Part shown: piece by piece, positions 23,449 through 37,039 of the stretch | Numbering within the stretch: position 1 is the first letter of the stretch | Layout of the letters: every line of letters begins with the position of its first letter | DNA from: Dichelobacter nodosus | Lineage (GTDB): Bacteria > Pseudomonadota > Gammaproteobacteria > Beggiatoales > Beggiatoaceae | Length of the DNA: 37,039 nt | Direction: 5' to 3' | Assembly (NCBI GenBank): GCA_020720085.1 | Contig: DYPE01000013.1 | Coordinates: forward strand, 1 to 37,039 | Notes under the pieces: generated by a model | The model's database searches: none | Told to the model about the DNA's origin: nothing | Seen by the model: only the letters and a program-made list of their open reading frames with translations | Program-made: the position numbers and the translations under genes

Positions 23449-23501
23449 AATTATGAATTATGAATTATGAATGAATCATTCATAATTCATAATTCATAAT
23501 T
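23449..23501. repeat. Heptamer-built palindrome with 26-bp perfect stem
   Basis: Tandem heptamers TGAATTA run up to a centre at 23475 and then repeat in reverse complement, giving 26 paired bases on either side of one unpaired A. Further heptamers (GGTGAATTATGAACGG) extend it left to about 23430. It fills nearly the whole gap between the divergent PIG-L and gspJ genes, so it must influence their promoters or be transcribed as a hairpin. Confidence 0.93.
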
Positions 23502-34456: not shown

Positions 34457-34486
34457 AAGGCGGATAGGCTGCGCTGAATCCGCCTT
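34457..34486. terminator. Hairpin between convergent genes
   Basis: AAGGCGGAT and ATCCGCCTT are perfect reverse complements (9 bp) around a 12-base loop. It overlaps the stop codon of the minus-strand NTPase-TPR gene and follows thioredoxin, so it could end either transcript; no clear T run supports it. Confidence 0.5.
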
Positions 34487-35841
34487 ATGCTAAGCCCAAA
34501 TTCCGCCGAATCTTCTCCGGCAAACTCTCTATCACCGCTTTGCGCTTCGCCCGCCAGTCCGCCGCTTCCTCCGGCTTATCCTCGCGCTCGGCAATCTCGG
34601 CAAGAATGGCGTAGGTTTTCCAAATCTCCACCCCCACCGGGTCTAGTGTTTCCATAATCGCCAACGCCTGCGTCGCCAGTTGCCGCGCTTCCGCCAGGCG
34701 GTCTTTTTGTCCCAAACTCAGCAGCAGGACGGCGAGGTTGTTGAGGGCTTTGGATTCACTCGCCGTATCACCAGCAGCGTGCAAACCCGCAATCGCCTTG
34801 CGAAACCAGTCCTCCGCCTCGGCGGGTTTGCCGACTAATAGGGTTACTGTCGCCAATTGATTCCAGCTTTCCGCCGCGCCTTGCAGATTGCCTTGGCTTT
34901 CATTCAAGCGCGCCGACTCCCGACATGCCTGTTCCGCCGCGTCCCACTGTCCGGCTGCTTGGTAGGTCATGCCCAGTTGGTGATGAATAACGGCTTCTGA
35001 GCCAGGTTCATTGATTTGGCGAAAAATCCCCAGCGCGGCTTGATAGCGCTGTGCCGCTTCCGCCAGTTGTCCTTGTCGCAGCGCCAGGGTGCCGAACTGG
35101 CCGTTAATTGCGCCTATTGACCGCGCATCGCCAAGCTCTTGCATAATCGCCAGCGCTGCCTGGTATGCCGCTCGTGCGCCGGGGTAGTCGCCTAAGTCTG
35201 TCAGCACGTCGCCCAGGTCGATGTGTGCTAGGCCGGTTCCGCGTTTCACGTCTTGGTCTTGCTCTAAGCCCGCCAATTCTTCCAGTTTTTGCCGATACCG
35301 CGCCGCCGCCTCGCCCAACTGCCCTTGCATTGCTAAGCAACGTCCCAACATGCCCAAAGTCACGCAACGCTGATAACTCGGCGCAGCGCCCAAACCGTCC
35401 AATAAATCCACAAACACCGCCTGCGCCTCAGTGGCGCGTCCGGCGTTGTACCACTGCTCGCCCAAGCCGAAACGCGCCCCAACCCACGGCTGCGAACTCC
35501 GCTCGCCGCCGCTGTGCGCGGCGCGGGTGGCGAGGCGTTCATGCTCGCGGCGCAAGCCGAAGTAGCCGAGAAATCGGTTGACGTTATTGGCAAACTTCAC
35601 CGCGTCGTTGTCTTTGGCCTCCAGCGCCGCGTTCACCGCTGCCAGCAGATTGGGCAATTCGCGCCGCACCACCGCACGGGCGGCGTGGGGATTGTTTTGG
35701 TCTAACCAAAACAATTCGCCGGATAATTGATAATAGGCTTGGCGATGGCGGCGGCGCAGGCTTTCCGCTTGTGACGGCGTGAGTTTGTTCAGCAGCACCG
35801 GGGCGAGGGTGGGGTGAAAGCGCAGGTAAGTATCACCGCCT

Positions 35842-35874
35842 AAACCTGGCAGGTCTTGAAGACCTGCCAGGTTT
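35842..35874. repeat. 33-bp perfect palindrome inside a coding region
   Basis: AAACCTGGCAGGTCTT, one central G, then its exact reverse complement. On the minus strand it encodes NLAGLQDLPGL within the NTPase-TPR protein, adding eleven codons without changing the frame. It sits in a loop just before DTYLRFHPTLAPVL. Confidence 0.9.
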
Positions 35875-36677
35875 TCAGTTTGGATCAGACCGGTGTGGAG
35901 CAGGGATTGTTTGAGCGCAGGCCAAGTGGATTCATCCGCACCGGGGGCGAGTTCGGACGGTTGATGTTTATTCACTTCAGCGGCAAGTTGTTCTTTATCC
36001 GCCAACATAGACAGCAATAAGGCTTGTAATTGCTGCATGATTTCCGGTGGCAATTCGACATTTTCCGGCAATGGAACCCCCACTGCCCGCGCAATCGCCA
36101 ACATATCGCCTGATTCCATTGCGGCAAGCAGTTGACGACCTTGCGCAACGGTACTGTCTTCATCCACCTTGCCCACGCCGGTCACTTTCAAAATCTGGCT
36201 TTCCATCGCCCCGCCCTGAAACACCGCTAAATTCGGCAACCACGCCCGCGCCTTTGCCTCCAATCTATCCAGCGACAAATTCAAAGACGCCAGCAAACCC
36301 GCGTCCTCACCGCTTTCCTGTGCCAGCAACTCATCCAAACGCGGCGACACATCCGCCAGCGAGCGGCTTTGTAATACTTTTGCCAGCAAACCGATAGACA
36401 GCGGATGAAACGCGACTTTTTCCAACAACTCCAACAAACCCACCCGCGTCAGCGACGGCAAGCCTCGGTCGCGTCCCGGCGGCAGGCGCAAAAGCTGATT
36501 CAGCCAATCCAGCGCGTCTTGCGGCGCTAAACCGGTCAATTGCAGGTGCTGATGCTTGAAACTACCGCTGGTGGGGTATTTGGGATGCTGCAAATCCGGC
36601 AGGCGCGAGGTGAGCAGAATGCGGATATTGGGCGAGTTTTCTGACCAGTGCGCGGCGGTGTCGAGTAATTCGCGTAA

Positions 36678-36710
36678 AGGGGTGTTATCCCTTGCAGGGA
36701 TAACACCCCT
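36678..36710. repeat. Second 33-bp palindrome inside the same coding region
   Basis: AGGGGTGTTATCCCT, loop TGC, then the exact reverse complement AGGGATAACACCCCT. It encodes ARGVIPARDNTPL in the minus-strand frame, again eleven codons, just after Walker B. Its sequence differs from the other palindrome, so it belongs to another repeat family. Confidence 0.9.
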
Positions 36711-37039
36711 GGCTTCGGCGAGGGTTTCCAGATTATCCAAAATCACCAGCGTCGGCGTTTCTTTCAGTAACGCAAACGCGGCTTGCGCATCCAACAAAGA
36801 GCTTTCCAACACCGCGCCCAGCGTACTGACCGCAAAACCTACCGCGTCCTCGCCCTGAAAACTGGCATAGGAAATAAACACTGCCCGCTTAAACAGCCCG
36901 GCGCGTAACAACCACCGCGCCGCTTGAGGGAAAAGCGTTGTGTGCCTTGTACGCCAAAAGCGCGTTCAATCTGCCACAGTTCACGGGTGCGCCCGTAAAA
37001 GCCGGATTCTTGCAGGGCGGGGAGGTTGTGCAGCGCATG

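What the first reader, a model, noticed from the sequence alone, without database searches (positions are those of the whole stretch)
35842..36710. Two different 33-bp palindromes inserted in frame in one gene
Both palindromes are exact, both 33 bp, and both leave the reading frame open while adding eleven codons (NLAGLQDLPGL and about ARGVIPARDNT). They recall Rickettsia palindromic elements that make new protein segments. Two unlike families converging on 33 bp in one gene suggests selection for frame-neutral length.
Basis: partly seen in the sequence, partly recalled or inferred. Interest (0 to 1): 0.7.

Follow-up and report, generated by a model that had tools for sequence, protein, structure and literature searches.

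The report
33-bp palindromes inserted inside bacterial genes
Two tiny 33-letter mirror-image DNA elements sit in one gene of a sulfur-bacterium relative, and they belong to a large class of such elements, all exactly 33 letters long but with many different sequences, that occurs across several bacterial phyla and phages and often adds or replaces eleven amino acids without breaking the protein.

Summary
P1 (35842-35874) and P2 (36678-36710) are exact 33-bp palindromes, both open in one minus-strand ATPase/TPR ORF. Homologs lack 10 residues at P2 and about 7-9 at P1. The convergence on 33 bp is also real, but it is not a property of this gene. Both arm families recur in up to hundreds of copies per genome across this bacterial family. 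The P family also occurs in Bacteroidota, Chloroflexota, Methylococcales and phages. Nearly all copies have the same 33-bp layout, and about 80% lie outside genes. An unbiased palindrome census of 0.87 Mb shows a spike at exactly 33 bp, made of many unrelated sequences. These share a hidden 6-3-6-3-6-3-6 architecture (four hexamers, three trinucleotides), so shape rather than sequence defines the class. Coding copies lie in frame in unrelated conserved genes (NRPS, PKS, QueG, kinases, a Mu-like phage head gene), mostly reading NLxGLxDLxGL. Two other genes also carry two different families. Best reading: non-autonomous mobile or homogenised palindromes that work like Rickettsia palindromic elements but are not members of that family. 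The mobilising enzyme is unknown; four transposase (Y1/RAYT) loci examined carry none nearby. The window's own gene looks broken upstream.

The parts
35842..35874 (.). P1: 33-bp palindrome of the P family (AAACCT GGC AGGTCT TGA AGACCT GCC AGGTTT); codes on the minus strand for ..NLAGLQDLPGL..
36678..36710 (.). P2: 33-bp palindrome of the T family, inside-out form (AGGGGT GTT ATCCCT TGC AGGGAT AAC ACCCCT); codes on the minus strand for RGVIPARDNTP
34485..36911 (-). Host ORF, 808 aa: ATPase domain remnant (Walker-B LVILDNLE) followed by TPR repeats. P2 follows the LVILDNLETL motif; P1 lies between the ATPase and TPR parts
36912..37039 (-). Upstream remnant of the same gene in another frame (NLPALQESGFYGRTRELWQIERAFGVQGTQ..); the Walker-A segment of homologs is absent and the frame changes at about 36.93-36.95 kb, next to the contig end

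Best explanation
P1 and P2 are two members of a shape-defined class of 33-bp palindromic elements (four A-n4-T-type hexamers separated by three trinucleotides) that multiply within genomes and spread between bacteria without coding for anything themselves. Shown here: fixed length with sharp ends; hundreds of copies in some genomes; many arm sequences with one architecture; arms kept complementary; presence in several phyla and in phages; in-frame copies in unrelated conserved genes, mostly in linkers; coding copies carrying the arm type that is common in their own genome. Inferred: a copy is written into new sites, sometimes replacing a native stretch of similar length, through a single-stranded hairpin intermediate acted on in trans by an unidentified enzyme or by template switching and gene conversion. 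Insertions into genes survive when they land in a linker, because 33 is a multiple of three and one or two frames have no stop. The element does not serve the host protein; it is tolerated and occasionally becomes a stable new segment.
For: Length: with gaps of 0-30 or 2-30 bases allowed, the two families give a 29-bp core, that is 33 bp overall, in nearly all listed copies. In 184 of 208 copies pairing stops exactly at 33. Copy number: up to 598 (P) and 361 (T) per genome in the same bacterial family. Palindrome kept as such: 85 of 90 copies have complementary variable arm bases, against 43 expected if independent; 175 of 185 for the three-base arm centre. Architecture beyond P and T: in the palindrome census 59 of 144 are exactly 33 bp; the 23 that are neither P nor T have inner 6-3-6 symmetry 4.04/6, against 1.70 +/- 0.24 shuffled and 1.62 for palindromes of other lengths. 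Coding: 29 of 149 P copies lie in long ORFs, 25 of them in the NLxGLxDLxGL frame; examples are an NRPS adenylation domain against a solved homolog, QueG, and a Mu-like portal/head ORF in two viral contigs. P2-type copies sit in the same frame in two G000 genes. Relatives without the insert. Homogenisation: the linker copy in G047 is the CTTCAAG type that is commonest in that genome, while orthologs in other genomes carry CTGACAG or CTGCCAG. Decayed copies at the same site exist.
Against: No mobilising enzyme was found, no target-site duplication is seen, and no same-species filled/empty pair was available, so movement itself is inferred. Some coding copies replace rather than add residues (L361, QueG), which is not simple insertion. 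The window's own gene appears broken, so its two inserts may not be under protein-level constraint. ORFs were called by length and homology, not by expression.
Confidence: 0.75

Rival explanations
1. They are REP/REPIN elements moved by a RAYT (Y1 tyrosine transposase), the classic engine for short bacterial palindromes.
For: Size (20-40 bp), double inverted-hairpin layout and mostly intergenic location resemble REPs; Y1_Tnp genes occur in 35 of 43 genomes of the family; REPs inside ORFs are known (PMC3733652).
Against: No GTAG or CGTC end tag. Four strong Y1_Tnp loci have no P or T unit within 1.5 kb. G052 (99% complete) has 114 P copies and no Y1_Tnp match, and G018 and G038 have T copies without Y1_Tnp. 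Hits in G000 are weak.
Confidence: 0.25
2. They are binding sites of a host DNA-binding protein (four hexamers, 9-bp repeat) with a chromosomal or regulatory role; copies are selected for and co-evolve with the protein, which explains fixed spacing and genome-specific arms.
For: Fixed spacing with variable sequence, strict arm complementarity, genome-wide homogenisation.
Against: Two or more unrelated arm families coexist in one genome (G040: 361 T and 193 P). Copies occur in phages and across phyla. Tandem arrays, and in-frame copies in unrelated genes such as NRPS, PKS and QueG, have no evident regulatory logic.
Confidence: 0.15
3. They arise in place by replication template switching at short quasi-palindromes; the dispersed copies are independent creations.
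For: At P1 and in L280/L316 the native sequence probably already resembled one arm (ENLxG; EDLTGL) (for L280/L316 this is judged from the flanking repeat, not from a homolog alignment); palindromes can replace native sequence with no net length change (L361).
Against: Template switching predicts varied lengths and site-specific arms. Here one length and a few arm sequences recur hundreds of times in unrelated contexts.
Confidence: 0.1
4. Bidirectional intrinsic terminators or mRNA-stability hairpins, with the coding copies being accidental.
For: Strong hairpins, many intergenic copies.
Against: Fixed 33-bp shape, second-level 6-3-6 symmetry, and in-frame coding copies in unrelated genes.
Confidence: 0.07

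Closest known systems
Rickettsia palindromic elements (RPE), and the related palindromes of Wolbachia
   Same: Palindromic, several families, found inside unrelated protein genes in frame and giving a conserved peptide, as well as outside genes (PMC10969869; PMC2996958).
   Different: RPEs are described as about 150 bp and are known from intracellular alphaproteobacteria. Here the element is exactly 33 bp, in free-living sulfur bacteria, Bacteroidota, Chloroflexota and phages, with arms of many sequences and one architecture.
REP sequences and REPINs (GTAG and CGTC superfamilies)
   Same: 20-40 bp palindromes, high copy number, mostly intergenic, sometimes inside ORFs (PMC3733652).
   Different: No GTAG/CGTC tag; no RAYT neighbourhood at four loci tested; a symmetric 33-bp double-hairpin unit instead of a tagged asymmetric hairpin; one arm family shared across phyla.
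Bacterial MITEs, e.g. those reported in Candidatus Thiomargarita nelsonii
   Same: Non-coding repeats abundant in giant sulfur bacteria; that paper reports palindromic repeat consensus sequences of unknown identity (PMC4853749).
   Different: MITEs are 70-300 bp with terminal inverted repeats (PMC3733652) and, from general knowledge, target duplications; here 33 bp, all palindrome, no target duplication.
Double-hairpin elements of fungal mitochondrial DNA (recalled from memory; only literature hits, not read)
   Same: Very small units made of two hairpins, dispersed, sometimes in genes.
   Different: Organellar; sequence relationship not tested. Here fixed 33-bp length and inner 6-3-6 symmetry in bacterial chromosomes.

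Membership tests
Rickettsia palindromic elements | Inserted in frame in unrelated protein genes and coding for a conserved peptide | tested here: met
   NLxGLxDLxGL, KPDRSxRPVRF and RxVIPxRDNxP peptides in unrelated genes
Rickettsia palindromic elements | Length of about 150 bp | tested here: not met
   33 bp in nearly all copies; RPE length from PMC10969869
Rickettsia palindromic elements | Sequence homology to an RPE family / Rickettsiales host | tested here: inconclusive
   no Rickettsiales among the listed hosts (a truncated scan); no Rfam match in the window; RPE sequences themselves were not aligned
GTAG/CGTC REP (RAYT-mobilised) | 20-40 bp palindrome in high copy number | tested here: met
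GTAG/CGTC REP (RAYT-mobilised) | GTAG or CGTC tag at one end | tested here: not met
   ends are AAAC.. or AGGG../AGAC.., symmetric; flanks have no consensus
GTAG/CGTC REP (RAYT-mobilised) | Associated RAYT gene flanked by the repeat | tested here: not met
   four Y1_Tnp loci without P or T; genomes with copies but no Y1_Tnp; not exhaustive
MITE | Target-site duplication | tested here: not met
   direct flank repeats at chance level
MITE | Terminal repeats shared with a parental IS | not tested
   no IS library was available

The most novel reading that the evidence does not exclude
A previously undescribed class of mobile DNA recognised by shape, not sequence: exactly 33 bp, built as 6-3-6-3-6-3-6 hexamers and trinucleotides, carried across bacterial phyla and phages by one kind of machinery that tolerates many arm sequences, and a continuing source of new in-frame protein segments in free-living bacteria.
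Probability: 0.4. Interest if true: 0.88.

Novelty: new variant of a known kind. Interest (0 to 1): 0.76.

Why it matters
In-frame palindromic elements have mainly been treated as an oddity of Rickettsia and a few REP-rich genomes. Here a smaller version with a fixed length and a common architecture is spread over several phyla and phages, in genes as conserved as NRPS, QueG and phage head proteins. That makes two open questions testable: what copies such tiny palindromes, and whether they are a general route by which proteins gain new linkers. The sequence-independent 6-3-6-3-6-3-6 design points to a recognition mechanism based on DNA shape.

Tried and rejected
A RAYT origin was weakened. Rfam found nothing in the window. 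Plasmid searches with 33-base queries found nothing, and the first exact viral scans found nothing, while relaxed patterns did. A further palindrome at 35689-35717 (12-bp arms, 1 mismatch) is about what chance gives and lies in sequence with no length change in homologs, so it is not counted. Literature: no paper in the open library holds two of the four arm strings or describes a 33-bp palindrome of this kind; subscription papers could not be searched.

Full report
What is there. The window is a whole contig (C35) of a 2.97-Mb, 170-contig genome. P1 and P2 are exact 33-bp palindromes at the stated coordinates, both open in the minus-strand 808-aa ORF 34485-36911, an ATPase-like domain followed by TPR repeats. 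Shuffled sequence gives nothing comparable. The genome belongs with sulfur bacteria of the Beggiatoa/Thioploca/Thiomargarita kind. That is inferred: the 137-aa query used came from locus L235 (titled Thioploca sp.) and matched G037 of the same family at 100%.

Relatives. Homologs in the same bacterial family lack ten residues at P2 (a constant four-residue linker against fourteen) and 7-9 residues at P1. At P1 the relatives already read ENL.., so the native sequence resembled the element's arm. Upstream of the ORF the Walker-A segment is missing and the frame changes about 100 nt from the contig end. The window's gene may therefore be a pseudogene or an assembly fault, and it is not the best place to argue for selection on the protein.

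The families. P is ACCTGNCAGGT-N7-ACCTGNCAGGT and T is GGATAACA-N13-TGTTATCC, each 29 bp plus two paired bases per side. Although 0-30 or 2-30 spacer bases were allowed, nearly all listed copies have the same spacing. Copy numbers reach 598 (P, G048) and 361 (T, G040). The window's own genome has few: two P, five T, and two inside-out T copies (P2 and C119), both of which are in ORFs. With about eleven elements in the genome, two within 840 bp has probability about 0.03, a mild coincidence.

Distribution. Viral contigs hold P in 14 stretches and T in two; one viral contig has both.

Anatomy. Pairing stops exactly at 33 bp in 184 of 208 copies, and there is no target duplication. Variable arm bases are complementary in 85 of 90 copies, against 43 expected, and in 175 of 185 for the three-base arm centre. 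Each 15-bp arm is itself a near 6-3-6 hairpin, so the whole is 6-3-6-3-6-3-6. A length-blind census of 865 kb gave 59 of 144 palindromes at exactly 33 bp. The 23 that are neither P nor T share the inner symmetry (4.04 of 6 against 1.70 +/- 0.24 shuffled; 1.62 for 42 palindromes of other lengths). Examples are AGGACT GCC AGTCCT TCG AGGACT GGC AGTCCT and AGAAAT CCG ATTTTT AAA AAAAAT CGG ATTTCT. The loci of that census were picked for holding one P form, so they represent genomes that carry the class; some of the 23 are near-copies of one another. Two 50-kb E. coli stretches gave three palindromes, none of 33 bp. Energetically the single 15-bp hairpin is far preferred to two small ones, so the inner symmetry is unlikely to be explained by stability of the folded strand alone (inference).

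Coding copies. Of 149 P copies, 29 lie in long ORFs, 25 in the NLxGLxDLxGL frame, three in KPDRS.. and one in a third. Genes identified include an NRPS adenylation domain (insert between KFI and LYKTGDL against solved gramicidin synthase), QueG, a subtilase, a PD-(D/E)XK nuclease, a TPR-SpoIIE protein, a YfhO-like membrane protein, a pyridine nucleotide-disulphide oxidoreductase, FGE-sulfatase with DUF4062, and a PNP-domain protein. From the sequence alone I would add a PKS, a reverse transcriptase and histidine kinases. Two viral contigs carry it in an ORF with Mu-like portal and head domains, between the two domains. Two other genes besides the window's carry two different 33-bp families: the PKS (L255) and the TPR-SpoIIE protein (L262). 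Of 33-bp palindromes 33 of 178 are in long ORFs, against 6 of 106 non-P/T palindromes of other lengths (p = 0.002). The P copies in that set were ascertained by one form, so this is suggestive only.

One linker followed through evolution. A kinase/ATPase gene family has a linker of about 17 residues. Orthologs and paralogs either lack any palindrome (L374, L375), carry a perfect 33-mer of type CTGACAG, CTGTCAG, CTGCCAG or CTTCAAG, or carry a decayed one. In G047 the linker copy is the CTTCAAG type, which makes up about half of that genome's 40 copies. So coding copies follow their genome's own population, by fresh arrival or conversion. Flanks have diverged while the palindrome stays intact, but those loci were found by searching for intact palindromes.

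Mechanism. I think a small non-autonomous palindrome is copied through a hairpin intermediate by machinery acting in trans, with local replacement of the target. Fixed length, homogenisation and cross-phylum spread are shown; movement and enzyme are inferred. RAYT transposases are the obvious candidates but are not supported: four strong loci have no P/T unit nearby, and G052 has 114 P copies without a Y1_Tnp match.

Known kinds. It works like Rickettsia palindromic elements (PMC10969869, PMC2996958) and resembles REPs inside ORFs (PMC3733652), but it fails the length test for the former and the tag and RAYT tests for the latter. The Thiomargarita nelsonii paper mentions palindromic repeats of unknown identity (PMC4853749), which may include these.

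Limits. Genes were judged by ORF length and homology. Genomes from the genome search are unnamed. The named scan was truncated. The own-genome census covers 56%. Subscription literature was not searchable.

Noticed in passing
L129 (G000 contig C84) 2369-3919, palindrome 2923-2967: MurE of the same genome has an 18-residue in-frame insert (GPERGRSPEQRPCSGHGRS) at a 45-bp palindrome, compared with solved MurE. A like peptide, GPERGRGPEQHPRSGYGRS, is in a CHASE8-domain ORF (L161 17111-17153): a further palindrome family, same frame in two genes.
   Followed up: partly
L137 (G000 contig C92) 3352-3404: 53-bp palindrome with CACGGAG repeats open in a 1199-aa MmeI-like methyltransferase ORF (HGGTETRSKNLRASVPPC).
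   Followed up: partly
window 23449-23501: 53-bp exact palindrome made of AATTATGAATT-type repeats; similar palindromes recur in G000 (L079, L112, L119, L129) outside ORFs.
   Followed up: no
L146 13660-13720 and L112 13739-13799: Palindromes whose centre holds a CTGAGC(C/T)TGTCGAAG repeat, as if one small repeat had inserted in the centre of another; the first has T-family arms.
   Followed up: no
L070, L086, L098: Three copies of a 48-56 bp palindrome GCCCTGAAGGGGCGAAAT..ATTTCGCCCTTTCAGGGC.
   Followed up: no
L119 4372-4424 and L161 16535-16564: Another palindrome family around GTGCCAAGC(T)ACGGCTTGGCAC in two contigs of the same genome.
   Followed up: no
L244 627-717, L295 4992-5078, L255 3189-3278 and 4890-4985, L238: Tandem duplications of a 33-mer plus flank, in frame inside ORFs; G040 has closely spaced copies with 45- and 53-bp steps.
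   Followed up: partly
window about 36930-36950: The host ATPase gene lacks its Walker-A segment and changes frame next to the contig end; pseudogene or assembly error.
   Followed up: partly
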